A stretch of 64,000 bases of DNA from assembly GCF_000519325.1 (NCBI RefSeq), contig NZ_KI912613.1:3589633-3653632 (forward strand). The letters are read 5' to 3'. Source of the DNA: Patulibacter minatonensis DSM 18081. Lineage in GTDB: Bacteria; Actinomycetota; Thermoleophilia; Solirubrobacterales; Solirubrobacteraceae. Numbering within the stretch: the stretch's first letter is position 1; every line of letters starts with the position of its first letter. Below, piece by piece: positions 280 to 37,397 of this stretch. Below the pieces are notes generated by a model. The model saw only the letters and a list, made by a program, of their open reading frames with translations, was not told where the DNA came from and searched no databases. A program made the translations under genes and the position numbers.

Positions 280-589
280 GCGCCGGTCCCGACGCGACGG
301 CAGGCGCGGGCAACGAGTCCGCCCCGCGGCGGCACGCGGGGGGCCGGCCGGGGTCACGGACGGTCGGAAACCGGCCACGAACGACCCCCGACCCGGCCGT
401 CCCGTCACGCCGAGGTCACGGACGGTCGGGTACCGACCACGAACGACCCCCGACCCGGCCGTCCCGTCACGCCGAGGTCACGGACGGTCGGGTACCGACC
501 ACGAACGACCCCCGACCCGGCCCTCCAGCACGACGGGCGCGGCGGACGTGTCGGGGACCACGCGTGGCCGATCGACGGCCGGGTCGCCG
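280..589. other. gene-free interval occupied by tandem repeats
   Basis: No convincing gene is seen between the first gene and the 3' end of the minus-strand thioredoxin-fold gene. The interval is dominated by the three-copy 62-bp array described separately. Open frames across it on both strands are continuous only because the sequence is GC-rich and repetitive. Confidence 0.6.
352..530. repeat. 62-bp tandem repeat array, three copies
   Basis: Copies begin at 352, 414 and 476, each opening with GGTCACGGACGGTCGG. Each unit holds the near-palindrome GGTCGGGTACCGACC (the first copy is degenerate there) followed by a C-rich stretch. The second and third copies are almost identical until the third diverges near 523. 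The same opening block, as GGTCACGGATGGTCGGATACC, recurs in the array at 3418-3640, so the two arrays bracket the intervening cassette. There is no spacer diversity, so this is not CRISPR. Confidence 0.9.
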
Positions 590-1381
590 TCACCCGCCGC
601 GGGACGCCTCGGCGACGACCCGGTCGATCGCGTCGACGTCGTCCGTCGCCACGCGCCGCCCTTCCCGCGACCCACGCGGGAGCACGTAGAGCGACGGCGT
701 CTCGTTCGTCCCCAGGCCCCGGGCGAGGGCCTCGGCGGCAGCGATGCCGGAGCGCGACGCCGGGGTCTCCCGGGTCTGCACCCGGTTCGTGGCGATCCTG
801 TTGACCGTCGCGATCCGGCGGAGCGTGTCGTCCGTCGCCCAGGCGTCCTGCTCGGAGCCCTGGTTCCAGTAGAGCGCGTCGACGAAGGTCCAGAAGCGTC
901 CCGCGGGGGCCAGCGCGTAGGCGGCGCGACGTGCGCCCTCGCCGTCGGTCGTCCCGGCCGGGGCGTCGCGGTAGTTCACGAGCTCCAGCCGCAGGTTCGC
1001 CTTCCCGGTCCGGACGAGCCGGTCGACGATCTCGCGCTGCGGGCCCAGCTCGTGCGCCTGGCAGCTCGGGCACTTGAGGTCCGCGATCTCGAGGAGCGTG
1101 ACCGGGGCGCCGGGGTCGCCGAGGACCGTGCCGCGTTGCGGGAGACCACGCAGCATCGCGGCGGTCTCGCGCGACCCGCGGACGCCGTCGCGGTCCGGGG
1201 TGCCCTTCGCCGCCGGGTCGGGCCTGAACGCCCCGACGGCGACGACCACCGCGACCACGACGACCACGACCCCCACCGCGCCGCCGAGCAGCCGGAGCCG
1301 GCGGCGGCGCTGCTCGGCCGCGTGCTCCGCGGACTCCCGGGCCTCGCGGGCGCGCCGCGCCGCGGCGGCCTCAGCAGGCAC
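590..1381 (-). CDS. membrane-anchored DsbA-like thioredoxin-fold protein
   Basis: About 263 residues from a GTG at 1381 that overlaps the upstream stop codon by 11 bases. The N-terminus is charged and Arg-rich, followed by a single strongly hydrophobic Val-rich transmembrane segment (roughly residues 27-50) and an extracytoplasmic thioredoxin fold. The active site is CPSC within ADLKCPSCQAHEL, typical of DsbA-like proteins that oxidise or isomerise disulfides outside the membrane; the cis-Pro region is NETPSLYVLP. It is the last gene of a minus-strand set with an ECF sigma factor and its membrane partner, suggesting envelope redox or stress control. An ATG at 1486 is also in frame but would overlap the upstream gene much more. 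Confidence 0.8.
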   Translation of the reverse strand: MPAEAAAARRAREARESAEHAAEQRRRRLRLLGGAVGVVVVVVAVVVAVGAFRPDPAAKGTPDRDGVRGSRETAAMLRGLPQRGTVLGDPGAPVTLLEIADLKCPSCQAHELGPQREIVDRLVRTGKANLRLELVNYRDAPAGTTDGEGARRAAYALAPAGRFWTFVDALYWNQGSEQDAWATDDTLRRIATVNRIATNRVQTRETPASRSGIAAAEALARGLGTNETPSLYVLPRGSREGRRVATDDVDAIDRVVAEASRGG

Positions 1382-1925
1382 GGGGATCGCCCGGGTCGAC
1401 GGCGGGACCCGCGTCCCGCGGCGGGACGAGGAACGCCGACCCGACGGAGCACCGCAGCACCCGGGCCAGGTCGAGGGACGTCCCATCGCCGGCCGCTCCG
1501 GTCGATGCCGCTCCTGCCGCCGTCACCCCGGACGACCGTGCGTCGCTCTCCGGCGACCCGGCACGGGCCTCTGCCGGCCCCATCGTCGCCGCCCGACGGG
1601 CCGACCCGTCCGCGACGTCTGACGCACCCGGGGCGCCGGACGAGCCGGTGGACGTGAAGGCGAACACGACGACCACCGCCAGGACCGCGGCGCACGCGAC
1701 CGCGGCGAGACGACCGCGGAGCGCCGGCGCACGGCCGGCCGCGGGGAACGGGAGCACCGGATCCGGGGTGGCACGCGGCGCCTTCAGGACGGTCGGCGGG
1801 GGGACGGGACGGCGGTCGACGTCCCGCCCCGGTGCGGCGCCCCGCCCACGCGCGGTCGCCCGCTCGTCGGCGGCGCGCATCAGGGCGAGCCGGAGCTCGG
1901 GGAGGTCGACGTCGGGCCCGCTCAT
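1371..1925 (-). CDS. putative membrane anti-sigma factor partner of the ECF sigma factor
   Basis: 184 residues. The N-terminal third begins MSGPDVDLPELRLALMRAAD and is hydrophilic and cytoplasmic; one transmembrane helix (Ala/Val-rich, ending VVVVFAFTSTG) follows at about residues 70-92; the rest is a small, low-complexity Ser/Ala/Gly-rich outside part ending in Cys. Its ATG overlaps the sigma-factor stop codon as ATGA (1922-1925), so the two are probably translated together. Position and topology suggest an anti-sigma factor, but I see no zinc-finger HxxxCxxC motif, so this is inference from context. Confidence 0.6.
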   Translation of the reverse strand: MSGPDVDLPELRLALMRAADERATARGRGAAPGRDVDRRPVPPPTVLKAPRATPDPVLPFPAAGRAPALRGRLAAVACAAVLAVVVVFAFTSTGSSGAPGASDVADGSARRAATMGPAEARAGSPESDARSSGVTAAGAASTGAAGDGTSLDLARVLRCSVGSAFLVPPRDAGPAVDPGDPRAC

Positions 1926-2488
1926 GCCGGGGGCACCAGTCCGCGGAGGGTGGACAGGCCGCGGCTGACCCGCTGCCGGACGACGGCGGTGGAACAGCCG
2001 AGCTCCCGCGCGATCTCCGCGTAGTCGCGCCCGTCGAGGACGTGGGCGACGACGGCGTCGCGGTGCTCGGCGGGCAGCCGGTCGAGCAGCACGAGAGCGT
2101 CTGCACCGCGGGCGACGTCCGCCAGGTGCTCCAGGTGCTCGACCGTCTCGTCGGTCAGGTCGAGGGCCGGCAGGCCGAGGCGATCGCGGGCGTCGTGCCG
2201 CACCCGGGCGCTGCGGTAGCTGTGCGAGAGGACGTTGCGCGCGATGCCGAAGAGCCAGGCCACCGCGGACGCGCCGTCCCGTCCCTCGAACCGGTCCGCG
2301 GACTCGAGCGCCGCGGCGAAGACCTCGGCGGTGAGGTCCGCCGCGAGCTCCGGGGTGCTCGTCCGCCGGAGCATGAAGACGAGGACCGCCCGTTCGTGCC
2401 GCTCGTAGAACTCCCCGAACGCCGCGCCGTCGCCTGCGGCCAGCAGCTCGTGGTCCGGTCTGGGTCGTCGTCTCCGCACACGCATCAT
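1922..2488 (-). CDS. ECF-type RNA polymerase sigma factor
   Basis: 188 residues from the ATG at 2488. Sigma region 2 is visible around DLTAEVFAAALE and AWLFGIARNVLSHSYRS, and region 4 around LDRLPAEHRDAVVAHVL and DYAEIARELGCSTAVVRQRV, the usual two-domain ECF layout. A second ATG follows immediately. The gene is coupled by ATGA overlap to a membrane protein and lies between two secreted thioredoxin-fold genes, which suggests it controls extracytoplasmic redox or stress genes. An in-frame start at 2575 would add an unlikely 29-residue extension. Confidence 0.88.
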   Translation of the reverse strand: MMRVRRRRPRPDHELLAAGDGAAFGEFYERHERAVLVFMLRRTSTPELAADLTAEVFAAALESADRFEGRDGASAVAWLFGIARNVLSHSYRSARVRHDARDRLGLPALDLTDETVEHLEHLADVARGADALVLLDRLPAEHRDAVVAHVLDGRDYAEIARELGCSTAVVRQRVSRGLSTLRGLVPPA

Positions 2489-2620
2489 CAAGGGAGTACC
2501 GCGACGGTGCCGGGTGTGACGAGGACAATCCGTCGACCGGCCGGCGGCGAGGTCCACCTCCGGCGCGCTCTGCACCCGGCATGCACGAGGACGGGGTCCG
2601 GTCGCGCTCGACGGCCGCGC

Positions 2621-3361
2621 CTACCGCGTCCCTCCACGCTCCAGACGGGCGACGGCCTCCTCGATCCCGCGCGCAGAGGTGTTCGAGACGGCGAGGGTGG
2701 ATCCGCCGTCGCGGCGCCGCACGTACAGAGCGGGCGTCCCGGTCGCCTCCAGGCGCGAGAAGCGCTGGTCGTCGGCCCGCGCCGCACGGCGGGACGCGGC
2801 GGTCTCCCGCATGGTGCCGGCACCGACCGGCGCCCCTGCGAGGCGGCCGAGCTCGACGAGGCGAGCGGGCGTGGCCCACTCGCGGGTCTCGTCGCCCTGG
2901 CGGCGCAGCACCTCCCGGGCGAAGCGCCACAACCGGTTCCGGGACGCGAGGTTCAGCGCCGTGGTGCGCAGCCGCGCACCGTCGTGCGTCCCGACGTTCC
3001 CGTCGATGATGTCCACGAGGTGGAGCTCGATCGCCGCACGCCCGGGGCGCACCAGCCGGCGGACGACCGTGCCGAGCTCGGTCTGCTCGAAGCTCCGGCA
3101 CGCCGGGCACTTCAGGTCGGCGAACAGCACGATCCGGACCGGCGCGCTCGCGCGGCCCAGGAGGTTCCCGTGCTCGCGGACCCCCGGGTACGCGGGGGTC
3201 GCGGCGAGGGCGGCCGACGGCGCACCGGACACGAGCGCCGCGGACGTCGCCGTGGCGAGCGACGCCACCGTCGTCACGATCGCGGTCCGTCGCGTCAGGA
3301 GCCGGCCCTCCGGATCGGTCGTGCCGCGGGCGACGGGACGGGGCGATCCGGGACGGGACAT
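2621..3361 (-). CDS. secreted DsbA-like thioredoxin-fold protein with Tat-like signal
   Basis: 246 residues. The N-terminus carries a twin-arginine-like sequence LLTRRTAIVTTVASLA followed by a hydrophobic stretch and an Ala-rich cleavage region (SAALAATPAYPG), so export, possibly by Tat, is likely. The mature part is a thioredoxin fold with active site CPAC in FADLKCPACRSFEQ and a cis-Pro motif in EATGTPALYVRR. The same ADLKCPxC block is found in the protein at 590-1381, so the two are paralogues flanking the ECF sigma gene. Disulfide oxidoreductase activity is inferred from the fold. Confidence 0.82.
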   Translation of the reverse strand: MSRPGSPRPVARGTTDPEGRLLTRRTAIVTTVASLATATSAALVSGAPSAALAATPAYPGVREHGNLLGRASAPVRIVLFADLKCPACRSFEQTELGTVVRRLVRPGRAAIELHLVDIIDGNVGTHDGARLRTTALNLASRNRLWRFAREVLRRQGDETREWATPARLVELGRLAGAPVGAGTMRETAASRRAARADDQRFSRLEATGTPALYVRRRDGGSTLAVSNTSARGIEEAVARLERGGTR

Positions 3362-3417
3362 GTCCGGAGGCTACCGGCGGCTCGCCGGGCGATCGACCGA
3401 CCGGATCACCGCGCCGC

Positions 3418-3640
3418 GGTCACGGATGCCCGGATACCGACCGGAAGTGACCTCCGACCCGGGTCGCCGTTGTGTTGCGGTCACGGATGGTCGGATACCG
3501 ACCGGAGGTGACCTCCGACCCGGCTCGTCGTCGCGCCGCGGTCACGGATGGTCGGATACCGACCGGAGGTGACCTCCGACCCGGCTCGTCGTCGCGCCGC
3601 GGTCACGGATGGTCGGATACCGACCAGCGGTGACCTCCGA
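3418..3640. repeat. 61-bp tandem repeat array, four copies, related to the array at 352-530
   Basis: Units start at 3418, 3479, 3540 and 3601 (exact 61-bp spacing) with GGTCACGGATG, then TCGGATACCGACC, then the near-palindrome GGAGGTGACCTCC. The second and third units are near-identical; the fourth runs into a pentanucleotide repeat; a degenerate restart GGTCACCGATGG lies at 3726. The opening block matches the 62-bp repeats of 352-530, so this is a dispersed family. Confidence 0.9.
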
Positions 3641-3716
3641 CCCGACCCGACCCGATCCGATCCGATCCGACCCGATCCGATCCGACCCGACCCGACCCGA
3701 TCCGATCCGACCCGAC
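3637..3716. repeat. pentanucleotide microsatellite, CCGAC/CCGAT x16
   Basis: Sixteen uninterrupted 5-bp units of CCGAY run from 3637 to 3716, mixing CCGAC and CCGAT. It grows out of the CCGACCC end of the fourth 61-bp unit, which suggests slippage expansion of a repeat end. Any open frame through it is a product of the repeat. Confidence 0.9.
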
Positions 3717-3780
3717 GCGCGCCGCGGTCACCGATGGCCGGAGACCGACCGGGAACGGACCCGGCCCGTCGCGCCGCCCC

Positions 3781-4266
3781 TCACGCCCACCGGAACGCCG
3801 CGTCGATCACGATCTCCGACCGGAGGGAGTTGGCGATGAAGCACTCGTGGTGCGCCAGGTCGACGAGCCGCCGGAGGCGGTCCTCGGACGTGTCCCCGCG
3901 GACCGTGATCGCCGGGCGCAGGACGATCCGCTCCACCCACATCGGCGTGAAGCCGGAGCCGTCGGTGGGCTCGGGCATCTCGCCGGTCGCCTCGTCGCGG
4001 TAGTCGACGACGTCGACGCGGGCGCGCGCGGCGACCGCGAGGAACGCGAGGAGCTGGCACGAGCTGGCCGCCGCGACCAGCAGCTGCTCGGGGTTCAGCC
4101 GCGCCGGATCGCCGCCGAACGCCGGGTCGCTCGTCAGGTCGAGCTCCGTGCGCGCCGGCGTCGCCTGCACCCGGTGGGCGCGGTCGTAGTGGTCGTACCC
4201 GACACCTGTGGAGCCGTCCCACGTGCACGTGGTGGCGTAACGGTGGACGGCCGCGCCCTCGGTCAT
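3781..4266 (-). CDS. OsmC/Ohr-family peroxide-reducing protein
   Basis: 161 residues from the ATG at 4266. The two conserved cysteines of the family are visible: one in VAAASSCQLLAFLAV and one in LAHHECFIANSL, with the conserved LNPEQLLVAA block just before the first. OsmC/Ohr proteins reduce organic or fatty-acid hydroperoxides with these thiols in the cytoplasm. It stands alone and divergent from clpS, with no OhrR-type regulator beside it. The longer frame to 4362 is unlikely because it would extend into the promoter region shared with clpS. Confidence 0.9.
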   Translation of the reverse strand: MTEGAAVHRYATTCTWDGSTGVGYDHYDRAHRVQATPARTELDLTSDPAFGGDPARLNPEQLLVAAASSCQLLAFLAVAARARVDVVDYRDEATGEMPEPTDGSGFTPMWVERIVLRPAITVRGDTSEDRLRRLVDLAHHECFIANSLRSEIVIDAAFRWA

Positions 4267-4394
4267 GCGGACACCTTGGCACAGCACGGCGGGTGTCCTA
4301 TGGTGGAGATGACGGCCCCGCGACCTGAGGTCCCCCGGCACGATCGCCGCCTCGGTCCGCATCCCCCGGGACTTCCCCGTTACCCTGCACGACC

Positions 4395-4682
4395 GTGAGT
4401 CAGACCATCGAGCAGACCCGCGCCGCCGACCCGCTGACGGGACTCGGTGGGGCGTGGAACGTGATCGTCCGGGACGACGACCACAACACGCACCAGGGCG
4501 TCGCGGTGGTCCTCGCCCGGTTCATCCCCGGCGTGTCCGTCGACTCGGGCCTCCGGATCGCCGACAAGATCCACCACACCGGCGCGGCCATCGTGTGGAC
4601 CGGCCACAAGGAGCTGGCCGAGCACTACTGGGAGCAGCTGCGCGACGCGGGCCTGACGATGGCCCCGCTCGAGCAGGCCTGA
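4395..4682 (+). CDS. clpS: ATP-dependent Clp protease adaptor ClpS
   Basis: 95 residues from a GTG start. The core motif WNVIVRDDDHNTHQGVAVVL matches the ClpS pattern of NVxxxDDxxxT, and the later IHHTGAAIVWTGHKELAEHY helix matches the family. ClpS binds N-degron substrates and delivers them to ClpAP or ClpCP in the cytoplasm. Length is normal for the family. It is divergent from the osmC gene and followed by a strong palindromic terminator. Confidence 0.88.
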   Translation: MSQTIEQTRAADPLTGLGGAWNVIVRDDDHNTHQGVAVVLARFIPGVSVDSGLRIADKIHHTGAAIVWTGHKELAEHYWEQLRDAGLTMAPLEQA

Positions 4683-4726
4683 GCCCCGCGGTCCGGGTCC
4701 CGACCCGGGCGACGACCTCGAGAACC

Positions 4727-4756
4727 ACGAAGGCCCGCCGATCGGCGGGCCTTCGT
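4727..4756. terminator. perfect 30-nt palindromic terminator after clpS
   Basis: A perfect inverted repeat with 15-nt halves (ACGAAGGCCCGCCGA and its complement) is followed by CGTT. It lies between the convergent clpS and minus-strand gene ends, so it could serve both. The foot ACGAAGG / CCTTCGTCGTT recurs in two other terminators of this window. Confidence 0.85.
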
Positions 4757-4788
4757 CGTTCCCGGCGCGCCCTGGAGCGCCCGGACGT

Positions 4789-5181
4789 TCAGCTGGCGAC
4801 CGGGGCCCCGGTCATGCGCTCGTCGTCCTCGGCCTTCGCCGGACCGAACGGCTCGTCGCCGTACGGGTCGGTGACGCCGGCACCGCGGCCGTGCGCGATC
4901 GCGACGTTCTTCTCGTACGCGAGGGGCTTCTGGAAGAGCTTCGTCTGGACGGTCCGGAACTCGATCCAGGTCTCGGAGTTCCACATCCGCGTCCAGGTCT
5001 CCTGGTCGGGGACCGCGATCGACATCCGGAACTTGTAGGCGTCCTCGCGCGAGCGGATGACCCGGACCTCGAGCGCGCCTTCACGCAGGAGCTTCGGCGT
5101 CAGCTCCTGGAGCTTCGCGGCGAGGTTGTCGGCCTGCAGGCCTGTCGCGTAGAACGGGATCTCGTAGGCGATCGTCGTCAT
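4789..5181 (-). CDS. conserved-looking hypothetical protein
   Basis: 130 residues beginning MTTIAYEIPFYATGLQADNL. It is a soluble, mixed-charge protein with no signal peptide or membrane segment and several aromatic residues (WTRMWNSETWIEFRT). The C-terminus is acidic and disordered. Codon use is like its neighbours, which supports a real gene. I do not recognise a domain. It is convergent with clpS. Confidence 0.7.
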   Translation of the reverse strand: MTTIAYEIPFYATGLQADNLAAKLQELTPKLLREGALEVRVIRSREDAYKFRMSIAVPDQETWTRMWNSETWIEFRTVQTKLFQKPLAYEKNVAIAHGRGAGVTDPYGDEPFGPAKAEDDERMTGAPVAS

Positions 5182-5468
5182 CGTGCGCCTATCGTCCCAC
5201 GTCCGGGCCGATCGCGCGGGCGAGGCGTCGGGCCGGGGCGGCCGCAGCGATCCGCCGACCGCGTTCGTCACAGGGGAGCCCGGTCCCCGAGCACGCGTCC
5301 TCGGACGCGCCCGCCGGCGGCCGGGGCGATCGACCGCAGGACGCCCCACCCGGAGCCTGGAAACATTCTTGGAGGAACGTGCGTGCGTTCCGTCGTCCCC
5401 CGACGTCCTCACCCCGACGGCGCGCAACGGATGCGCCGTCACCGTCCCCCAGAGAACGAGGAACTCCC
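5182..5468. other. divergent intergenic region, no gene seen
   Basis: 287 bases between two divergent genes. Apart from the ribosome binding sequence GAGGA just before 5469, no hairpin, repeat or promoter pair is convincing. Confidence 0.5.
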
Positions 5469-5909
5469 ATGTCCCGCATCAGCAGCACCGTCCGGCCGAC
5501 CCGTGCGACGAGCGTCGTCCTGGCCGGCGTCGCCGCCCTCACCGCGTTCGCCGGCCCCGCGGTCGCCGCCGACGCCCCGGTCATCAGCGCGCAGAAGACC
5601 TGGACCGGGGCGAAGACGCCCGTGTCCGTCCCCGGCAACCACCTGCACAAGGGCGACACCATCCCGAAGGGCGCGGTGCTCGTGTACCGCGAGGTCACGG
5701 TCACCGGGCCCACCTCGAAGCGGCGACTCGTGCTCACGCTGCCGCGCCGCAAGGGCCTGACCGGCATCGCCGTGTCGGAGGGCTCGTCCGTCAGCGTCCA
5801 GGTCGCCAAGGGCCACGAGCAGTACGAGGGCAAGCGGCGAACCGTCCTCACCGTGCAGGGACGCAAGGGCGACGGGGGCAAGGTCACCGTCTACGGGTAC
5901 GGCCGCTGA
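5469..5909 (+). CDS. small secreted protein of unknown function
   Basis: 146 residues from the ATG at 5469, preceded by GAGGA about six bases upstream. A Sec signal peptide is clear (RATSVVLAGVAALTAFAGPAVAADA), followed by a beta-rich mature part with repeated Val/Thr/Lys segments (REVTVTGPTSKRRLVLTLPR) and a Lys/Arg-rich end. No enzyme motif is visible. It ends 10 bases before the GTG of the fused sigma factor, so the two may be co-transcribed. Confidence 0.75.
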   Translation: MSRISSTVRPTRATSVVLAGVAALTAFAGPAVAADAPVISAQKTWTGAKTPVSVPGNHLHKGDTIPKGAVLVYREVTVTGPTSKRRLVLTLPRRKGLTGIAVSEGSSVSVQVAKGHEQYEGKRRTVLTVQGRKGDGGKVTVYGYGR

Positions 5910-5919
5910 ACGCTGCCCC

Positions 5920-7359: not shown

Positions 7360-7423
7360 CGGGACCGCGCCGCCTGCCGCTGGACGACCGCGGCGGCGCG
7401 CTGATGCTGGATCGTGACGAAGC

Positions 7424-7454
7424 ACCTGCGGCCGCGGTGAACACGGCCGCAGGT
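7424..7454. terminator. bidirectional terminator hairpin
   Basis: An 11-bp perfect stem (ACCTGCGGCCG, 7424-7434, with 7444-7454) and a 9-nt loop lie between the convergent sigma-fusion gene and ccr. There is no U-tract, as is usual in GC-rich actinobacteria. Confidence 0.7.
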
Positions 7455-7458
7455 CCGG

Positions 7459-8715: not shown

Positions 8716-8787
8716 CCGCGGAACCCTACCCACAGTACGACCGGACCGGATGCCCGCCCGGCCCCCGTTGGAGAACCGCTGGGGGTG

Positions 8788-9216: not shown

Positions 9217-9351
9217 CGCTTCCGGGCTCTCCAGGTTCGGTCGCGGCAGGGGCCGCGGACGATCGGTCGCAACCCTACCCGAGGTCGCGTTCCGTGTCCG
9301 ATCGATCTGCGACACCCGTCGAGCGGACGGTGCGCGCGCGGTCGCGGGACC

Positions 9352-10407: not shown

Positions 10408-10481
10408 GTCTCCGACAGTAGCGCCCGCCGATCCGGTTCCCGACGCAGGGCGTTCCGGACGATCATCTAGAGTGCAGGCCG

Positions 10482-10847: not shown

Positions 10848-10863
10848 CGGCCGGGCGACGCAC

Positions 10864-11214: not shown

Positions 11215-11220
11215 GGGACC

Positions 11221-14540: not shown

Positions 14541-14656
14541 GAGGCGGGGAGCGATCCGGCTCTGGTTCGTCGGACGAGCCATCGACGCATCGGTCGGTCT
14601 GCGAGCGGGGAGTGATGCGCGCTTGGTTCGTCAGACGAGCCATCGACGCATCGCGC
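14541..14656. repeat. two-copy direct repeat with 61-bp spacing
   Basis: TGGTTCGTCGGACGAGCC followed by ATCGACGCATCG begins at 14563 and is repeated at 14624 as TGGTTCGTCAGACGAGCC plus the same 12 bases; similarity extends upstream through GCGAG and GGGGAGYGAT. Each copy holds a near-palindrome, GGTTCGTC G GACGAGCC. The 61-bp period is the same as in the unrelated-looking arrays at 3418 and 37295. Confidence 0.85.
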
Positions 14657-24925: not shown

Positions 24926-24930
24926 AGAGG

Positions 24931-27936: not shown

Positions 27937-28223
27937 CGCGTCACCGCCGGGACGGAGGGCGGGACGACCCGCGGGAGCGTGGGGGCGAGCACCGACGACC
28001 CGCGACCCGCCGGGCGCGGGCGTGACGGCACCCCGGCCGGTCCCGTGGGGGGACCGGTCGTCCGGGCGGCCGAGGCGGTGGTGGGACGTACGCGCACCGG
28101 ACCATCGTGCCGCACCGGCGCCCGGCGCGGGGAGGCGTGGCGCGGGGGAGCGCCCCGGACCGGGTGCCGCGGGTCGTCCACGTGCTGTCGCGACCGGGCC
28201 CGCGCGCCGGTACGGTGCCTGCC

Positions 28224-29217: not shown

Positions 29218-29323
29218 CCCACGACCGTACTACGGGTGCCCGGAGATCCCGGCACGGATCCGCCGGTTCACCGAATTCGACCGCCGGTAGCTCTTTGCCG
29301 CGGACGGCGGTCGGGGAGGTACG

Positions 29324-30637: not shown

Positions 30638-30666
30638 GCAGGGGCGCGCGGGTCGCCGCCTCCGGG

Positions 30667-31149
30667 TCACCCCGTCGTCATCCCCACGACGATCAGCCCG
30701 GTCGCGATCGCCCCCGCCGCCGCGCGCAGGTGGTTCAGCGGCGTCCACGTCCCGGTGTAGTCGCTCCAGCGCGCCGCCGCGCCCGAGGCGTGCGCGTCGA
30801 CGGTAGACAGCGCGTCGTTCATCGGCACGTGCTTGCCCATCGTCAGGCCGATCACGCCGACGAGGAAGACCCCGGCGCCCGCGGCGAGCCACGGCGACGA
30901 CGGGTCCGACCACGACCGCACCGCGACGACGACCAAGGCGACGCAGAGGAGCGCTCCGCCCATCAGGACGATCATGAACGCCGGGGTGACGGCCTTCTCG
31001 TTGATTGCCTGCATCGCCTCGATGCTCGCGCCGGGGTCGAGCTGGTCGAGCGCCGGCATCACGAACGCCGAGAACGCGAACAGGACCCCGGCGCTCAGGC
31101 CGCACGCCAGCGCGGTCGACAGCGCGAGCCCGAACAGCGGCCCGGTCAT
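30667..31149 (-). CDS. DUF1772/anthrone-oxygenase-like membrane protein
   Basis: 160 residues with four membrane helices. The N-terminus LALACGLSAGVLFAFSAFVMPAL-like core (read as separate segments LSAGVLFAFSAFVMPAL) and NEKAVTPAFMIV, then MGKHVPMND, match DUF1772. Members include anthrone oxygenase-like proteins, but most are uncharacterised. Its ATG overlaps the upstream NmrA-type gene stop as ATGA. Confidence 0.8.
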   Translation of the reverse strand: MTGPLFGLALSTALACGLSAGVLFAFSAFVMPALDQLDPGASIEAMQAINEKAVTPAFMIVLMGGALLCVALVVVAVRSWSDPSSPWLAAGAGVFLVGVIGLTMGKHVPMNDALSTVDAHASGAAARWSDYTGTWTPLNHLRAAAGAIATGLIVVGMTTG

Positions 31150-32015
31150 CGGGCCACCGCCGGCACGTCCCAGGCGCCGCGGGCCGCCGCGTCGCGGACG
31201 TAGTCGCGAAACGGCCGGGCGGGCCGGCCGAGCGCCTCGCGCACGCCGTCGGTGGTCGGCGTGTTGCGGCCGTCGAGGACCTCGGTGAACAGGTAGGCCA
31301 TGAGGCCCGCCACGTCCTCCGGGACGCCGGCGGCGGCGAGCCCGGCCAGGAAGCCCGGGAGCGGGACCTCCGTGTGGACGACCGGACGGCCGATCGCCGC
31401 GCCGATCGCCCCGACCGCCTCGGCGAAGGTCAGCGCCTCGGGCCCCGTCAGCTCGTGGAGCCGGCCCGCGTGGCCGTCCTCGGTCAGGGCGGCGACGGCG
31501 ACGTCGGCGATGTCCTCGACGTCGACGAACGGCTCCCGCACGTCGCCGACGGGCAGCGCGACCTCGCCGGTCAGCACCGGGTCGAGCAGGAAGCTCTCGT
31601 CGAAGTTCTGGGCGAACCAGGCGCAGCGGACGACCGTCCACGGCGTCCCGGCGGCCTGCACCGCCCGCTCGGCGCGCTCGGCCTCCGGCTCGCCGCGTCC
31701 GGAGAGGAGGACGATCCGCTCGACGCCCGCCGCGGTCGCCTGCCGGGCGAACGCGCCGACGGTCTCGGCGGCGCCGGGCACCGCCAGGTCCGGCACGTAG
31801 GCGACGTAGACGGCCCGGACGCCGTCGAGCACGGCCGGCCAGGTCGACGCGTCGTCCCAGTCGAAGGCGGGCGACGCCGAGCGCGAGCCGGCGCGGACGT
31901 CGACGCCCCGGGCGCGGAGGCGGTCGGCGACGCGTCGCCCGGTCTTGCCGGTCGCGCCGAGCACGAGCACGGGGCGGCGGTCGGTGGTGGTGGAGTGCTG
32001 CGGTGTGGTGGTCAT
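31146..32015 (-). CDS. NmrA-like NAD(P)-binding protein
   Basis: 289 residues. Extended-SDR fold with VLVLGATGKTGRRVADRL for dinucleotide binding and no classical Tyr-x3-Lys, as in NmrA/NAD(P)H-quinone-type regulators and reductases. Core segments include VVRCAWFAQNFDESFLLDP and DVEDIADVAVAALTEDG. It is divergent from an AraC-family regulator, which probably controls this gene and the DUF1772 gene downstream. Confidence 0.87.
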   Translation of the reverse strand: MTTTPQHSTTTDRRPVLVLGATGKTGRRVADRLRARGVDVRAGSRSASPAFDWDDASTWPAVLDGVRAVYVAYVPDLAVPGAAETVGAFARQATAAGVERIVLLSGRGEPEAERAERAVQAAGTPWTVVRCAWFAQNFDESFLLDPVLTGEVALPVGDVREPFVDVEDIADVAVAALTEDGHAGRLHELTGPEALTFAEAVGAIGAAIGRPVVHTEVPLPGFLAGLAAAGVPEDVAGLMAYLFTEVLDGRNTPTTDGVREALGRPARPFRDYVRDAAARGAWDVPAVAR

Positions 32016-32096
32016 GCCGACGATTCAAGCGCCGCGAGTCTGGACGTTCCATAGTCGAATCGCTTCGATGCATACGCGAGCGTCTATGATGCGGCG
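32016..32096. promoter_or_regulatory. divergent promoter region between NmrA and AraC genes
   Basis: About 80 bases with lower GC than the flanking genes, containing CATAGTCGAATCGCTTCGAT and a loose inverted pair ATACGC / GCGTCTAT. These are plausible binding sites for the adjacent AraC-type regulator, but no exact operator was identified. Confidence 0.35.
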
Positions 32097-33077
32097 ATGG
32101 ACGCGATGGCCGGCCTCCTCGACGGTCCCCGGGCGCGCGGAGCGTTCCTGCTGCGCTCGGCGATGGACCCCCCGTGGTCGCTGCGGGTGCAGGACGAGGC
32201 GCCGCTCACGATCGTCGCGATCGTCCGCGGTCACGCGTGGCTGCTGCCGGAGGGACGGGACGCCGGGGCCCCGCCCGTGCGGCTGGACGTCGGCGACGTC
32301 GCCATCGTGCTCGGGCCCGACCCATACGTCGTGGCGGACGATCCCGCCACCGCCCCGCAGGCCGTGATCCACCCCGGCCAGCGCTGCACCACCCCGGACG
32401 GCGTCGAGCTCGACGCGATGCGCGAGCTCGGGGTCCGCACCTGGGGCAACGACCCCGACGGCGAGACGGTGATGCTGACGGGGACCTACCACCTGGAGGG
32501 CGAGGTCAGCCGGCGCCTGCTGCGCGCGCTCCCGCCGCGGCTGGTCCTCCGGGAGGACGAGTGGGACTGTCCGGTGATCCCGTTGCTCGCGGACGAGGTC
32601 GTCAAGGACGCGCCGGGCCAGGAGGCCGTGCTGGACCGGCTCCTGGACGTGCTGCTGATCGCCGTGCTCCGCGCCTGGTTCGCGCGACCCGAGGCCGAGG
32701 CGCCCGGCTGGTACCGCGCGTCGGCCGACCCCGTCGTCGGGCCGACGCTCCGGCTCCTGCACCACGAACCCGCCCGCCCGTGGACCGTCGAGGCGCTGGC
32801 GAGCGAGGCCGGGGTGTCGCGGGCGGCGCTGGCCCGCCGCTTCCACGACCTGGTCGGCGAGCCGCCGATGAGCTTCCTCACCGGGTGGCGGATCGCGCTC
32901 GCCGCGGACCTCCTGCTCGAGCCGGGCGCGACGGTCGGCTCGGTCGCGCACGAGGTCGGGTACGGCAGCGCGTTCGCGCTCTCGACGGCCTTCAAGCGCG
33001 TGCGCGGCGTGAGCCCCTCGGTGTGGCGGACGCGGGTCGCCGCAGACGACGCCGCCCCGGTCGAGGCGGCGGTATGA
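32097..33077 (+). CDS. AraC-family transcriptional regulator with cupin-type N-terminus
   Basis: 326 residues. The N-terminal half is an AraC-ligand-binding cupin (VAIVRGHAWLLPEG, VRLDVGDVAIVLGPDPY). The C-terminal 100 residues carry the double helix-turn-helix: VEALASEAGVSRAALARRFH and VGSVAHEVGYGSAFALSTAF, ending KRVRGVSPSVWR. It is divergent from the NmrA-like gene and is presumably its regulator. Confidence 0.88.
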   Translation: MDAMAGLLDGPRARGAFLLRSAMDPPWSLRVQDEAPLTIVAIVRGHAWLLPEGRDAGAPPVRLDVGDVAIVLGPDPYVVADDPATAPQAVIHPGQRCTTPDGVELDAMRELGVRTWGNDPDGETVMLTGTYHLEGEVSRRLLRALPPRLVLREDEWDCPVIPLLADEVVKDAPGQEAVLDRLLDVLLIAVLRAWFARPEAEAPGWYRASADPVVGPTLRLLHHEPARPWTVEALASEAGVSRAALARRFHDLVGEPPMSFLTGWRIALAADLLLEPGATVGSVAHEVGYGSAFALSTAFKRVRGVSPSVWRTRVAADDAAPVEAAV

Positions 33078-33157
33078 CACACGGGGAGCGCCCGACGCGC
33101 AAAGATCCATGGACCCGCCCCGACGATCCCGTCGGTCGGGTCAGGCAGGATCCCCCC

Positions 33158-33883
33158 ATGGACGAGCAGCACCCCGAGCCCGTCGCTCCCTCACCACCAC
33201 CTGGCCCGGAGGCCCCCACCGGGTTCCGCCGGCACCTCACGCCGCCGATGGTGATGAGCACGCTGGCGCTCTTCGTCGCGCTCGGCGGCACCGGCTACGC
33301 GGCGACGAAGCTCCCCGCGAAGTCGGTCGGCGGCAAGCAGCTCCAGGACTCCGCGGTGACGTCCTCGAAGGTCAAGAACGGGTCCCTCCTGGCGAAGGAC
33401 TTCAAGACCGGCGAGCTTAAGGCGGGCAAGGCCGGGGCGCGCGGGGCCGCGGGCCCCGCCGGCGCGACGGGCGCGACCGGGGCACCGGGACCGCAGGGCG
33501 CGACCGGCGCGACGGGCGACACCGGGGCCCGCGGCGGCTTCAGCTCGGTCGTCACGCGGTCGATCGAGACGAACGTGGCGGGTGGCGGCACCGCGGCGCT
33601 GGTGGTGGCGCGGTGCAACGTCGACGAGATGGCGACCGGCGGGGGCGGATCGTTCGTCAACGGCTCCGCCGACAACACGTCGCTCGGGCGCTCCGCGCCG
33701 ATCCGCGTGCTCCGGAACCCGGACGGGACCGTCGTCTCGACCGGCGTCCAGGACGCCAAGCCGGACGGCGCGAACAGCGCCGACGGCTGGACGGTCGTCG
33801 GGACGAACCGCACCGGCAGCGCGATGAACTCCGCCGACTCCCGGACGCTGCGGGCGTTCGTGCTCTGCGTCCCGCGGCCCTGA
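33158..33883 (+). CDS. collagen-like surface protein
   Basis: 241 residues from the ATG at 33158, with AGGA nine bases upstream. An N-terminal segment STLALFVALGGTGYAA is a membrane or signal segment common in Thermoleophilia. After SVGGKQLQDSAVTSSKVKN comes a Gly-X-Y stretch of about 40 residues (GPAGATGATGAPGPQGATG), then a globular C-terminal beta domain with two Cys (ARCNVDEM and LCVPRP). It is probably a short surface filament or stalk. Confidence 0.82.
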   Translation: MDEQHPEPVAPSPPPGPEAPTGFRRHLTPPMVMSTLALFVALGGTGYAATKLPAKSVGGKQLQDSAVTSSKVKNGSLLAKDFKTGELKAGKAGARGAAGPAGATGATGAPGPQGATGATGDTGARGGFSSVVTRSIETNVAGGGTAALVVARCNVDEMATGGGGSFVNGSADNTSLGRSAPIRVLRNPDGTVVSTGVQDAKPDGANSADGWTVVGTNRTGSAMNSADSRTLRAFVLCVPRP

Positions 33884-33952
33884 CGGCCGACGTGCGGCGG
33901 TCCCCGTCCGGGACCCGTGCGCCGCGGCGGCGCTCGGCGGTCCCGGGCCAGG

Positions 33953-34660
33953 TCAGGCCGCGGACGCCTCGCCGTAGAGCACCGACGGCGGGTTCGACAG
34001 TCCGGCCTTCACCTGGCGGCTGATCTCGTCGACGAGGACCTCGTCGTCGTCGGCGCGCAGCCCCGCGATCAGCGCGTCGGCGACCTCGGAGGCCTGGATC
34101 TTGTCGCCTTGCAGGCCCTCGGTCAGGTCGGTCTCGACGTAGCCGACGTGGACGCCGACCACGCGCGTCCCCTGCTCGCGCAGCTGGACGCGGAGGCCGT
34201 TGGTCAGGGACCATGCCGCGGCCTTCGTGGCCGAGTAGTTGGCGAGGTGCGGCATCGCGATCCACGAGACGACGGAGAGCATGTTCACGAGCGTGCCCCC
34301 GCCGTTCCGCGCCAGCACCGGGGCGAACGCCTGCGACACCGCGAGGGTCCCGAAGTAGTTGACGTCGAACTCCCACCGCGCGGTCTCGACGTCGATGTCG
34401 AGCGGCGCGGAGGGCGCCCCGACCCCGGCGTTGTTGACGACGAGCTGGACGTCGCCGAGCTCCTCGGCGAGCGCCCGGACGCCGGCCGCGTCGGTGACGT
34501 CGAGCCGGACGGGGACGACGCGGGGGTCGGTGACGGACGCGGGGTCGCGTGCGCCGGCGTAGACCTTGGCGGCGCCGGCGTCCGCGAGGGCCGCGGCGAA
34601 CGCCGCGCCGATCCCGCGGTTGGCGCCGGTGACGAGGACGGTGAGACCTTCGAGCTGCAT
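33953..34660 (-). CDS. short-chain dehydrogenase/reductase
   Basis: 235 residues. Motifs TGANRGIG, NNAGVG, then catalytic SVVSWIAMPHLANYSATKAA with Ser, Tyr and Lys. GARD after strand 2 suggests NADP(H). Substrate unknown. It stands between the collagen-like gene and the second ECF sigma operon. Confidence 0.87.
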   Translation of the reverse strand: MQLEGLTVLVTGANRGIGAAFAAALADAGAAKVYAGARDPASVTDPRVVPVRLDVTDAAGVRALAEELGDVQLVVNNAGVGAPSAPLDIDVETARWEFDVNYFGTLAVSQAFAPVLARNGGGTLVNMLSVVSWIAMPHLANYSATKAAAWSLTNGLRVQLREQGTRVVGVHVGYVETDLTEGLQGDKIQASEVADALIAGLRADDDEVLVDEISRQVKAGLSNPPSVLYGEASAA

Positions 34661-34764
34661 GGTGTTCCGATCTGCGTTGCGTGAAGCGACTCAGCGAGTC
34701 ATACAGGTTCGGTCATGCAACCCACTCGGGCGGGGCGATCCCGGCGACCCCGCCGCGCCGGCCG

Positions 34765-35673
34765 TCAGCGGAACGTGCCCTCATCGCGGACCGACGCGCC
34801 CGGGTGCGGTCCCATCCGCAGCAGCCGGTTGGTGGCGGCGTCGCGGGGGAGGGACTCGGCCACGTCGAAGTCGATGGTCAGCAGAGGACTCGGGGCGCCG
34901 AGCCGGTCGACCACGCGGACGGGGAGGGCGTCGTCGGTGCGGAGGTAGATGTCGCGGGTCGTCGTGCGCTCGGTCGCGGGGGCGTCGAGCCCCTTGCCGG
35001 GACCCGACGCGCCGGTGAAGGTCTTCAGCGAGCTCGTGATCCGGACGTGCTCGACAGGCGTGCCCCGGATCTCGGTGGGCTCGAGGACCTCGACGCCGTC
35101 CGCGCCGTCCTTCGCCCGGCGGAGGAGCTCGGCCAGGTCGCCGATCTGCGTCACGCCGAGCCCGGGCGGGGTGGTCGCCAGGTCCGGGACGGCGCGTCCG
35201 TCGCGCGGGAAGAACGCCGGGTCGGTGTGCCGGAGCAGCTCGTCCCGCTCGCGGTCGTAGGTCACGAACGTCCTCGCGTCCTCGTCGCGGACGGACTCGA
35301 GCTCGCCGCCCTGGAAGATCGTCCGGTTGCGTCGTCCGTCGGTCGTCTGCCACGACTCGACGGTGCGGACGCCCGAGCCGCTCGTGACGGTCGAGCGGTA
35401 GTGCAGGATCGTGTCGGGCTTCGTGACCGCGGCCGCCGCGCGGTCGAGGATCCCCGGCACGCTGCCGCCGTCGCCGGGCAGGACGGCGACGCCGGCGGTC
35501 GCGACGACCGCGATGGTGCCGGCGAGGGCGACCGGCCGGACGTACCGGGCGTGTCGTCGGGGCAGCGTCTGCGGGCCGGCGAGCAGCAGACGCTCGAGGG
35601 CGTCCTCGTCGGGGCGGGCCTCGGCCTCGGGACGGAGCTCGCGCAGCAGGGTGGTGGGATCGGTCGGGCTCAT
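34765..35673 (-). CDS. single-pass membrane protein, partner of ECF sigma factor
   Basis: 302 residues from ATG at 35673 that overlaps the sigma stop as ATGA. Cytoplasmic N-terminus of about 45 residues, then one hydrophobic segment (VRPVALAGTIAVVATAGVAVL), then a large extracytoplasmic domain with a MucB/RsbR-like pattern (LHYRSTVTSGSGVRTVESWQ, GTPVEHVRITSSLKTF), resembling lipoprotein LpqB/LolA-type folds. Most likely an anti-sigma factor or its sensor; inference from the coupling. Confidence 0.7.
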   Translation of the reverse strand: MSPTDPTTLLRELRPEAEARPDEDALERLLLAGPQTLPRRHARYVRPVALAGTIAVVATAGVAVLPGDGGSVPGILDRAAAAVTKPDTILHYRSTVTSGSGVRTVESWQTTDGRRNRTIFQGGELESVRDEDARTFVTYDRERDELLRHTDPAFFPRDGRAVPDLATTPPGLGVTQIGDLAELLRRAKDGADGVEVLEPTEIRGTPVEHVRITSSLKTFTGASGPGKGLDAPATERTTTRDIYLRTDDALPVRVVDRLGAPSPLLTIDFDVAESLPRDAATNRLLRMGPHPGASVRDEGTFR

Positions 35674-36278
35674 GTGCGGGTCCTGGTGGTCGTGGGGGTG
35701 GTGGGGTTCGGGACGGTGCCCCGGGGGGCGGGACGGTGGGCGGTGTCGGGCCGGACGACGGCGGGCGCCGGGCCGGCGTCCAGCCGGGCCTGCAGCGCCC
35801 GCGCGAGGCGGCGCCGTGCGCGGGAGAGCCGGGCGCGGGTGACGACCGGGCTGAGCTCCAGCACGACCGCGATCCGCCGGGCGGGGAGGTCCTCCCAGAC
35901 GTGCAGCAGCATCAGTTCGCGGTCCTGGGGCTCCAGGGTCTCCAGCGCGTCGAGCAGCGCCCGGCGGTGCTCCCGACGCTCGACGTCCTGCTCGACGCCC
36001 GGGCCGTCGAGGTTCGCGACCTCGCGGACGCGGCCGGCCAGCGCCCCGGCGCGCTCGGCGGAGCGGCGTTGGTTCGCGAGGACCTTCGTCGCGACGTTCA
36101 GGAGCCACGGCAGCACGTGGGCCGGGACGTCGCCGAAGCGGCGCCACGCGACGAGGAACGTCTCGGCCGCCAGGTCGTCGACCTGGTCGGCCGGGGCGCG
36201 GGCGGCCAGGTAGCGGTGGACCGTGGCGTAGTGCGCGCGGTACAGCTCGCGGTAGGCGTCGGGGTCGCGGTCGTCCAT
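35670..36278 (-). CDS. ECF-type sigma factor
   Basis: 202 residues from the ATG at 36278. Sigma region 2 is DQVDDLAAETFLVAWRRF and LPWLLNVATKVLANQRRS; region 4 is LETLEPQDRELMLLHVWE with LPARRIAVVLELSPVVTRAR. A Pro/Thr-rich tail of about 30 residues follows. Co-translated with the membrane partner via ATGA. This is the third sigma system of the window. Confidence 0.87.
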   Translation of the reverse strand: MDDRDPDAYRELYRAHYATVHRYLAARAPADQVDDLAAETFLVAWRRFGDVPAHVLPWLLNVATKVLANQRRSAERAGALAGRVREVANLDGPGVEQDVERREHRRALLDALETLEPQDRELMLLHVWEDLPARRIAVVLELSPVVTRARLSRARRRLARALQARLDAGPAPAVVRPDTAHRPAPRGTVPNPTTPTTTRTRT

Positions 36279-36345
36279 CACCGGGGAGATGTGCGGCCGG
36301 CGCGATTCGTGACCGGGGGCGTCGGAGTCCGCGGCCCGGGGTCCG

Positions 36346-36750
36346 TCAGAACGCGACGCCGCGCGCGTCGGCGTACGACCCGACCGGGACGACCCGCTGC
36401 CCGAGCGGGAGGAGGCTGATCGGGATCAGCTTGAAGTTCGCGATGCCGAACGGGATCCCGATGATCGTCACGCAGAGCAGGACGCCGGTGACCAGGTGCC
36501 CCAGGGCCAGCCACCAGCCGGCGAGGAGGAGCCAGATGACGTTCCCGATCCCGGACATCACCCCGGCGTCGGCGGCCGGCACGACCGTCCGGCCGAAGGG
36601 CCACAGGCAGAACCCGGCGATCCGGAGCGCGGCGATGGAGAACGGGATCGTGACGATCGGGATCACCATCAGGATCGCCGCGAACGTGTAGGCGAGCGCC
36701 ATCCAGAACCCGGCCAGGACGAGCCACAGGACGTTGAGGATCAGGCGCAT
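36346..36750 (-). CDS. yccF: YccF-family inner membrane protein
   Basis: 134 residues. Two copies of the YccF domain are visible, each with the pattern LxLxGWxxALxH and GIPFGIANFKLIPISLLPLG or PFSIAALRIAGFCLWPFG. The family is of unknown function. It lies beside the ECF operon. Confidence 0.85.
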   Translation of the reverse strand: MRLILNVLWLVLAGFWMALAYTFAAILMVIPIVTIPFSIAALRIAGFCLWPFGRTVVPAADAGVMSGIGNVIWLLLAGWWLALGHLVTGVLLCVTIIGIPFGIANFKLIPISLLPLGQRVVPVGSYADARGVAF

Positions 36751-36896
36751 GGGGCGAGCCTACGGCGGGCGGGTGAGGCCGCGATCAACGGGCGGGGCGG
36801 TGGGTGCCGGGTGGGGCAGCGGCGCGGGGGACGGAGGCGGGGCGCTGCGGGCACCCGATCGCCGGATACGTGGGACGGACGCGCGGAACGAGTGCG

Positions 36897-36936
36897 ACGT
36901 GACAACCCCCACCCGTCCCGGAGGGCCTTGTCACGT
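36897..36936. repeat. inverted repeat, arms ACGTGACAA and TTGTCACGT
   Basis: Perfect 9-bp arms surround a 22-nt GC-rich centre. The next unit of the same form begins 60 bases downstream at 36957. Confidence 0.85.
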
Positions 36937-36956
36937 GTCCGGGTGCTGGGGAGGAC

Positions 36957-36997
36957 GACGTGACGAGGGGCGCCGACACCGGGGGGTTCGTCACGTC
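36957..36997. repeat. inverted repeat, arms GACGTGACGA and TCGTCACGTC
   Basis: Perfect 10-bp arms with a 21-nt centre, 60 bases after the first unit. The arms share GTGAC half-sites with the first unit and with the arrays at 352 and 3418. Confidence 0.85.
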
Positions 36998-37079
36998 CTT
37001 CTGATTGGAACCGAGACGCCGGGGTCGCTACGGCCGCGGTCGGCTCGACCCAGCCCCGGCGGGTGCGAGAGACGGCAGC

Positions 37080-37260
37080 GGTGCGGCCGAGGCGGACGGG
37101 ACGGCCGAAGGCGGCGGGGCGCCCGAGGCGGACGGGAGGGCAGCGGAGGGCGGCGGGGCGGACGGGACGGCTGCGGAGGGCGGCGGGGCGGACGGGGCGG
37201 ACGGGACGGCTGCGGTGGGCGGCGGGGCGGCCGAGGCGGACGGGACGGCCGACCGGGGTG
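37080..37260. repeat. G-rich imperfect tandem block
   Basis: Blocks such as GGCGGACGGGACGGC, GGAGGGCGGCGGGG and GGCCGAGGCGGACGG repeat in irregular order over about 180 bases. The product in any frame would be Gly/Ala/Asp-rich low complexity. Confidence 0.75.
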
Positions 37261-37294
37261 GGGGAAGACCCGCCGGCGGTGACGGGTCGACCGC

Positions 37295-37336
37295 GAGGTG
37301 CCAAGCCCCCGCCTCGGACCGAGCCCTTGGCACTTC
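37295..37336. repeat. inverted repeat around GTGCCAAG and CTTGGCAC
   Basis: Arms of 8 bp (11 with one G-T pair) surround a 20-nt centre. A related unit starts exactly 61 bases on, at 37356. Confidence 0.8.
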
Positions 37337-37355
37337 GTGGTCGTTGAGCGACCCC

Positions 37356-37397
37356 GATGTGCCACGGTCCCACGCCGGCAAGGGCCCTTGGCACCTC
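37356..37397. repeat. inverted repeat around GTGCCA and TGGCAC
   Basis: Second unit of the pair, 61 bases after the first; both share the downstream text CYTTGGCACYTCGTGGTCG. It is followed by CCGTGACC, also found in the complement of the 352 and 3418 arrays. Confidence 0.75.

What the first reader, a model, noticed from the sequence alone, without database searches (positions are those of the whole stretch)
352..37397. A ~61-bp spacing recurs in intergenic palindromic repeats at several places
Arrays at 352 (62 bp), 3418 (61 bp), 14563 (61 bp), 36897 (60 bp) and 37295 (61 bp) all use nearly the same spacing although their sequences differ. The arrays at 352 and 3418 share GGTCACGGAY and TACCGACC. 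The 36897 and 37295 pairs have GTGAC or GTGCC half-sites, and 37411 repeats the CCGTGACC seen on the minus strand of the first arrays. All lie between genes and contain palindromes. A shared length with varied sequence suggests a mechanism that sets the period, such as protein binding, a structured RNA unit, or copying by a transposon-like enzyme.
Basis: seen in the sequence. Interest (0 to 1): 0.78.

Follow-up and report, generated by a model that had tools for sequence, protein, structure and literature searches.

The report
Helix-phased palindrome arrays after genes
Dozens of gaps between genes in this bacterium carry rows of a palindromic DNA word whose spacing almost always falls near 61, 72 or 82 letters, steps of about one turn of the double helix, so the rows are likely docking lines for an unidentified DNA-binding protein.

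Summary
In 1.244 Mb of the genome (window included) 61 is the commonest tandem lag from 50 to 80: 14 array segments, 60 and 62 add 3 each, every other lag at most 4. These arrays belong to several unrelated palindrome families. The window's first two arrays are family A: GGTC N6 GGTCG N5 CGACC N6 GACC, 130 sites in this genome, 0 to 2 in each of seven same-genus genomes, reversed control 0. Family A spacings form a ladder: 61-62 (33), 70-73 (43), 80-82 (5), with one exception at 75. It holds where neighbouring linkers are unrelated and is not split by core lineage. A same-genus relative has a different palindrome at 58-60 and 68-71. Arms do not covary, which speaks against hairpins. The REP transposase family was not found. 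Rows lie about 50 bp after stop codons and are rare in divergent gaps. Known family A loci are commoner around dnaA/parB, but the site list is incomplete. Best reading: phase-locked binding arrays for an unknown protein, REP/BIME-like in place, not in grammar or enzyme.

The parts
352..510 (.). Family A array 1: cores at 352-386, 414-448, 476-510 (spacing 62, 62), in a convergent gap 280-589
3418..3635 (.). Family A array 2: cores at 3418-3452, 3479-3513, 3540-3574, 3601-3635 (spacing 61, 61, 61), between two - strand genes
3637..3716 (.). CCGAC/CCGAT five-base repeat (16 copies) that follows the fourth core
3726..3760 (.). Degenerate fifth family A core (3 of 18 fixed positions differ), 125 bp after the fourth; not counted in the spacing statistics
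14553..14652 (-). Palindrome family I, two copies 61 bp apart between convergent genes
36896..36997 (.). Palindrome family J (GACGTGACRA .. TYGTCACGTS), two copies 61/60 bp apart
37295..37397 (.). Palindrome family K (GGTGCCAAG .. CTTGGCAC), two copies 61 bp apart, in the same gap as J
1..279 (+). Called gene whose stop codon lies 72 bp before array 1
590..1381 (-). Called gene ending 79 bp after array 1 (thioredoxin/DsbA-like by look, not tested against a family library); 36% identical to 2621-3277 beside array 2
3781..4266 (-). Called gene ending 145 bp after the last scored core of array 2 (OsmC-like by recall, not tested)

Best explanation
The arrays are likely rows of docking sites for an unidentified DNA-binding protein that would grip the double helix, because successive palindromes are spaced in steps of about one helical turn (61-62, 70-73, 80-82 bp). 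Shown: in family A the fixed letters are four half-sites (GGTC, GGTCG, CGACC, GACC) whose starts lie 10-11 bp apart, while the six letters between half-sites and the linkers between cores vary from place to place. Shown: rows sit about 50 bp after stop codons, most often between convergent genes. Inferred: a protein binds each core as a symmetric complex and contacts its neighbours along the row, so that an insertion or deletion in a linker survives only if it keeps the rotational phase. Inferred: copy number grows and shrinks by recombination between neighbouring cores, which makes linkers alike within a row but different between rows. Inferred, least certain: the bound rows act at gene ends, as roadblocks or topological anchors between facing genes.
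For: (1) Ladder: 119 sites with at most 2 of 18 fixed positions changed; 81 of 82 spacings under 100 bp fall in 60-63, 70-73 or 80-83. One value per locus and rung (41 values) gives a resultant of 0.87, best at 10.1 bp but flat from 9.95 to 10.3; 0 of 2000 uniform draws reach it. (2) Not simply a by-product of copying: linker identity between loci is 0.377 (212 pairs) against 0.333 shuffled, within a locus 0.90 (27 pairs); 5 of 49 adjacent linker pairs look unrelated (z under 3) and all 5 are on the ladder; 10 of 10 two-core loci are on the ladder, and in 8 of 10 neither flank resembles the linker. (3) 61 and 72 rows are not two lineages: core letters do not sort by rung (13 and 14 loci), and 6 of 33 rows mix rungs. 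(4) Replication in another species: unrelated palindrome R in a same-genus genome, 203 copies at 25 loci; of 173 spacings under 100 bp, 154 are 58-60 and 15 are 68-71. (5) Duplex rather than strand: N6 arms match 2.25 of 6 against 2.68 shuffled in A (36 loci); in R pairing is 0.722 against 0.766 shuffled, with columns 19/23 G.G in 22 of 25 loci. (6) Place: family A 19 convergent, 13 tandem, 2 divergent, 1 undetermined of 35 loci, 51 neighbouring 3' ends at a median of 51 bp, against 114 convergent, 417 tandem, 177 divergent, 38 edge gaps in the sample.
Against: No protein has been identified. Families H and E/G show only 60-62 between near same-direction sites and no 72 rung. Some families are off the ladder: O and P at 74, M at 55; one A spacing is 75; four R spacings are 56, 57, 75 and 76. 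61.4 and 59.0 are not whole turns at 10.5 bp, so what is shown is a fixed step, not that all sites face one side. With two or three rungs the period is only loosely fixed. The right flank of rows weakly continues the linker (0.478 against 0.375), so copying took part, and old copying may have decayed beyond detection in two-core loci. Why unrelated families in one genome share 61 is not explained by one protein. Families C, G, H and M occur in divergent gaps too. Most loci were reached through a sequence seed, so rows that break the grammar are under-counted.
Confidence: 0.6

Rival explanations
1. REP/BIME-like mobile repeats: short palindromes copied by a REP-associated tyrosine transposase or a similar enzyme, tandem rows arising as in REPIN clusters.
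For: Extragenic, high copy, after genes, species-specific, unrelated families in sister species; same general location as published REPs (passages of PMC3733652).
Against: No Y1_Tnp match in this genome or in the relative with 257 R sites; no candidate gene common to most rows; a transposase that copies a fixed unit does not predict steps of one helical turn with unrelated linkers. Other transposase families were not searched.
Confidence: 0.2
2. RNA or single-stranded hairpins, for example tandem transcription terminators or mRNA-protecting stem loops at gene ends.
For: Position after stop codons and few divergent gaps; the cores are palindromes; one terminator-like site at 3447-3467, inside array 2.
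Against: No covariation between arms in A or R, conserved mismatches in R; no other terminator-like site in 200-3900; no Rfam match besides tRNAs; RNA hairpins give no reason for a 10-bp spacing ladder.
Confidence: 0.12
3. A copying ruler: tandem duplication by slippage or an enzyme that measures about 61 bp, without any bound protein.
For: Linkers are nearly identical within rows and the right flank weakly continues the linker (0.478 against 0.375 in other loci); several unrelated families share 61.
Against: Three rungs rather than one, mixed rungs within rows, unrelated linkers on the ladder; left flanks show little sign of a linker copy (0.392 against 0.357).
Confidence: 0.13

Closest known systems
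REP elements and BIMEs (with RAYT/TnpA-REP)
   Same: 20-40 bp extragenic palindromes, high copy, after genes and between convergent genes, several families per genome, often species-specific (abstract and passages of PMC3733652, passages of PMC2817692).
   Different: No RAYT match in the genome; no GTAG or CGTC tag at the edge of the family A core; direct tandem units instead of mainly inverted dimers; arms do not covary; a spacing ladder of one helical turn, which the passages read do not mention.
REPINs of Pseudomonas fluorescens SBW25
   Same: Preferred inter-element distances (71 and 110 bp) and tandem clusters (passages of PMC3116915).
   Different: There the distance belongs to an inverted pair that is the mobile unit and three clusters lie next to RAYTs; here cores lie in direct tandem with locus-specific linkers and rungs at 61/72/82.
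BIME-2 bound by DNA gyrase, BIME-1 bound by IHF in E. coli
   Same: Extragenic palindromes bound by a protein (as cited in passages of PMC2817692).
   Different: REPs there alternate in orientation; no helical ladder in the passages seen; the protein here is unknown.
MIRU-VNTR minisatellites of Mycobacterium tuberculosis (recalled; one search gave a listing only)
   Same: Tandem repeats of roughly 50-80 bp in an actinobacterium (recalled).
   Different: Not known to me to be symmetric palindromes or helix-phased; not compared here.

Membership tests
REP/BIME | 20-40 bp extragenic palindrome in high copy | tested here: met
   35 bp core, 130 sites with at most 1 mismatch, reversed control 0; 34 of 35 loci lie between two called genes, 1 undetermined
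REP/BIME | GTAG or CGTC tag beside the stem | tested here: not met
   Beside the family A core only G at -1 (0.82) and C at 37 (0.88) stand out. Families B and J do end in CGTC within their arms
REP/BIME | RAYT (Y1_Tnp, PF01797) in the genome | tested here: not met
   0 matches in own genome, 0 in G001 and G004, 1 in G036; the control rings in 5 of 14 known genomes
REP/BIME | base-paired hairpin maintained by compensatory change | tested here: not met
   Family A 2.25 of 6 against 2.68 shuffled, 36 loci of the capped list; family R 0.722 against 0.766, 25 loci. One search is biased by the seed pattern and not used
REP/BIME | located after genes, few in divergent gaps | tested here: met
   A: 19 convergent, 13 tandem, 2 divergent, 1 undetermined of 35; R: 8, 15, 1, 1 of 25
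CRISPR array | unique spacers between identical repeats | tested here: not met
   Adjacent linkers within a locus are 0.90 identical on average (27 equal-length pairs); cas genes not searched
Intrinsic terminator | hairpin followed by a T run | tested here: not met
   1 site (3447-3467, between cores 1 and 2 of array 2) in 200-3900, shuffles 0.1; none at array 1
Known structured RNA | match to an Rfam family | tested here: not met
   Only 5 tRNAs in the window
Phased protein-binding array | spacing quantised near the helical repeat | tested here: met
   replicated in R. H and E/G show a single rung only
Phased protein-binding array | a protein that binds it | not testable with these tools
   Needs pull-down or footprinting

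The most novel reading that the evidence does not exclude
Each species of this genus has evolved its own palindrome-and-protein pair that coats gene ends with helix-phased rows, and in this species the rows form an origin-centred network (32 of 39 known loci within 1.21 Mb of dnaA) that organises half of the chromosome, an origin-side counterpart to terminus-organising systems, with fast co-evolution of site and protein.
Probability: 0.18. Interest if true: 0.9.

Novelty: new variant of a known kind. Interest (0 to 1): 0.72.

Why it matters
REP-like palindromes are usually explained as hairpins or as transposase substrates. Here is a set with no REP transposase found and no hairpin covariation, whose spacing moves in helical turns in two species with unrelated sequences. 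That is a sequence signature of duplex-binding protein rows at gene ends, and it gives a simple test (shift the spacing by half a turn or a whole turn) for what such repeats do. If the concentration of family A on the origin side holds up, a role in chromosome organisation becomes testable.

Tried and rejected
RAYT-driven repeats: Y1_Tnp searched, 0 matches. Structured RNA: Rfam and covariation negative. Reading the 36-sequence alignment as anti-covariation: rejected, because the seed pattern forced one arm to match; the grammar replaced it. Linking all five window arrays into one sequence family: rejected. A cognate gene flanked by arrays: among 196 proteins beside 53 arrays no gene family marks most rows; the largest recurrent group, transporter-like proteins (by look, untested), is beside 6 of 35 family A loci, more than the 11 of 427 sampled gaps, but it was picked after the fact and not followed. 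All-against-all blast of gaps and raw word counts mostly showed base composition. The family B genome search gave zero because my pattern was one base out of frame; it is no evidence. GC skew was too irregular to place the terminus. The genome-contig scan found one lone match, in Rhodococcus tukisamuensis, and says that near genomes may be left out.

Mended on recount: I first took the list as complete for exact sites. It is capped: three exact sites found in held stretches (2339972, 2930338, 2930399) are missing from it, and 11 of the 130 sites are in neither. The spacing ladder does not rest on that list (one search scanned held stretches).

Searches for prior print of helix-phased palindrome arrays or of repeats in this class. 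Nothing in their listings described it; most subscription papers are not held. Seen: PMC3733652 (outline, abstract and passages), PMC3116915 (passages), PMC12306157 (passages), PMC2817692 (passages). Other papers were seen in listings only.
Full report
What was checked. The window is bases 3,589,633-3,653,632 of a 5.52 Mb single-contig genome, G+C about 74% in sampled stretches. All five arrays are there. Between lags 50 and 80, lag 61 leads with 14 array segments (2 from the window); 60 and 62 have 3 each; the others have at most 4; lag 39, outside that range, has 6. Within gaps between genes, 17 of 52 repeat-bearing gaps (of 742 examined; 3 of the 17 from the window) have best lag 60-62 and one has 122.

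Families. The 61-bp arrays are not one sequence. Family A holds the arrays at 352 and 3418. Family B (GACGTGGTCG .. CGACCACGTC) has three loci in the sample, spaced 61, with one mixed 60/61. Families C/D (CGCTGCAGG / CGCTGCGGAT), E/G (GGGTGCGGTTSGTC ..), F, and window pairs I, J and K are 61 (J 61/60). Genome searches give 16 E/G sites, 61 or 62 apart wherever two are near, and for H 34 rows, which include a few sites read on both strands; same-direction H sites less than 100 bp apart are 60-62 apart, and one opposite-direction pair is 66 apart. O and P are 74, L is 70, M is 55. So the unit length is often near 61 while core length runs from 35 to about 49 bp.

Family A grammar. A pattern with fixed half-sites only, GGTC N6 GGTCG N5 CGACC N6 GACC, has 130 sites with at most one mismatch and a reversed-pattern control of 0. 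The seven same-genus genomes have 0, 0, 0, 0, 1, 1 and 2. A 16-letter seed gave 104 in the own genome and 0-9 in each of 60 relatives. In the stretches held (about 1.6 Mb), 119 sites with at most 2 changed positions were kept (79 exact, 34 one, 6 two); 22 with three changes were dropped; the reversed control had 4, all with three changes. Most of these stretches were chosen from the seed hits, that is by sequence and not by spacing.

The ladder. Spacings below 100 bp: 61 (20), 62 (13), 70 (2), 71 (9), 72 (30), 73 (2), 75 (1), 80 (1), 81 (3), 82 (1), 82 in all. Rung means, by arithmetic on those counts, are 61.4, 71.7 and 81.0. The exact sites listed, which include four loci not held, give the same rungs. 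Collapsed to one value per locus and rung there are 41 values, with best period 10.1 bp, flat from 9.95 to 10.3; none of 2000 sets of uniform draws between 58 and 84 bp reaches the observed strength. The rung is not inherited with a lineage: core letters are no more alike within the 61 or 72 class than between (13 and 14 loci; within minus between -0.018, 98% of shuffles at least as high). Of 33 rows, 14 use only the 72 rung, 13 only 61, 3 mix 61 and 72, 2 mix 61 and 80-82, 1 mixes 72 with 75-81. At 593679 related linkers differ by 10 letters (72 to 62) and at 5383055 by 9 (72 to 81).

Is the spacing only a copying trace? Linkers are alike within a row (0.90) but near random between rows (0.377 against 0.333). 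Five of 49 neighbouring linker pairs look unrelated (z under 3; one is borderline at 2.7), all on the ladder. Ten rows have just two neighbouring cores; all ten spacings are on the ladder, and in eight neither flank resembles the linker at z of 3 or more, though old copies could have decayed. The left flank of rows shows little sign of a linker copy (0.392 against 0.357), the right flank a weak one (0.478 against 0.375). Some copying is therefore involved, but it does not appear to set the rung.

A second species. In the same-genus genome G001 lag 59 is the commonest in a 400-kb sample (6, tied only with its own multiple 177; 118 has 5). Its family R, CGTTCCGGYTSAGGGCCGGTRNGCGGRCCTSAGCCGGAACG, was sought with a 19-letter seed: 257 sites with at most 2 mismatches, against 1-5 in each of the other seven genus members (own genome 5). 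In held stretches, 203 copies (at least 31 of 41 positions) at 25 loci have 173 spacings below 100 bp: 59 (137), 58 (7), 60 (10), 68-71 (15), and 56, 57, 75, 76 (one each). So another sequence gives another base period and, by arithmetic on the counts, a step of about 10.7 bp. A genome of another genus, G036, has arrays at 53, 54, 55 and 58 bp with near-identical copies, which I did not follow.

Hairpin or duplex? In family A the two N6 arms match at 2.25 of 6 positions, below the 2.68 expected when arms are dealt among loci (36 loci from the 82 listed exact sites). In R pairing is 0.722 against 0.766, and some column pairs are kept as mismatches: 19/23 G.G in 22 of 25 loci, 15/27 G.A in 21, 11/31 same-letter in 19. 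A selected RNA or single-strand hairpin should show the reverse. The conserved letters look like half-sites on duplex DNA.

Where they sit. With home-made gene calls (the same method) family A rows are convergent 19, tandem 13, divergent 2, undetermined 1 of 35; gaps of 40 bp or more in the sample are 114 convergent, 417 tandem, 177 divergent, 38 edge. Fifty-one neighbouring 3' ends lie at a median of 51 bp, 18 neighbouring 5' ends at 220 bp. R rows: 8 convergent, 15 tandem, 1 divergent, 1 undetermined of 25, against 19, 89 and 38 gaps of 100 bp or more. Flanking genes are varied; transporter-like proteins recur at 6 of 35 loci against 11 of 427 sampled gaps, a choice made after the fact. Families C, G, H and M also occur in divergent gaps.

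Chromosome position. dnaA is at 1.253 Mb and the strongest ParB match at 1.247 Mb. Of the 130 sites, 119 are placed, at 39 loci; 32 of 39 loci lie within 1.21 Mb of dnaA, where 44% is expected (P 1e-6). Eleven sites are unplaced because the list is capped, and they may lie in the gap of that list (2.34-3.55 Mb). If all eleven were separate loci outside the zone the figure would be 32 of 50 (P 0.003). The unbiased systematic sample alone has 4 loci, too few to judge. The 1.21 Mb limit was chosen after seeing the data. Convergent gaps show 22 of 49 in that zone; H (13 loci) and E/G (8) are not significant. The bias is a lead, not a settled fact.

Mechanism. Most likely a protein, not identified, binds each symmetric core and its neighbours along the helix, so linkers may change only by whole turns. 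That the sites are bound, by what, and to what end are inferences. A role at gene ends as roadblock or topological anchor follows from position alone. That several families in one genome share 61 remains unexplained: related proteins with one oligomer geometry, or a shared copying step, are both open.

Known or new. The location and abundance are those of REP/BIME elements (abstract and passages of PMC3733652 and passages of PMC2817692). Tag, RAYT and hairpin covariation were tested and not met, so I do not file these arrays as REPs. I call them a new variant of the known kind 'extragenic palindromic repeats', distinguished by helical phasing; the paper searches listed nothing that describes it.

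Noticed in passing
G000:C1, dnaA at 1.253 Mb: 32 of 39 known family A loci lie within 1.21 Mb of dnaA; 11 of 130 sites are unplaced, so the bias is provisional.
   Followed up: partly
family A loci 507985, 646626, 1758500, 1970348, 2225302, 2339828 of G000:C1: Related transporter-like proteins (by look) lie within two genes of 6 of 35 family A loci, against 11 of 427 sampled gaps; picked after the fact.
   Followed up: partly
L138:13396-13737, L127:8797-9149, L137:12998-13258, L131:7138-7344 (genome G036): Arrays of 53, 54, 55 and 58 bp units with almost perfect copies in a genome of another genus of the family.
   Followed up: no
window 3637-3716: A CCGAC/CCGAT five-base repeat of 16 copies lies between the fourth and the degenerate fifth core of array 2.
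   Followed up: no
window 37071-37249 and 37455-37601: Two more tandem regions lie in the same gap as the J and K pairs, one between them and one after them.
   Followed up: no
L086:16689-16841 and L094:13853-14005: Two distant family G rows are each followed by nearly the same 50-residue open frame (98% identical), a likely segmental duplication that carries a row.
   Followed up: no
window 590-1381, 1922-2488 and 2621-3277: Two similar proteins (36% identity), thioredoxin/DsbA-like by look, lie beside arrays 1 and 2, with a sigma-factor-like gene (by look) between them.
   Followed up: no
L185 (G036:C1:1466926-1467258): Genome G036 does hold a Y1 transposase match (E 5e-7), unlike G000, G001 and G004.
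   Followed up: no
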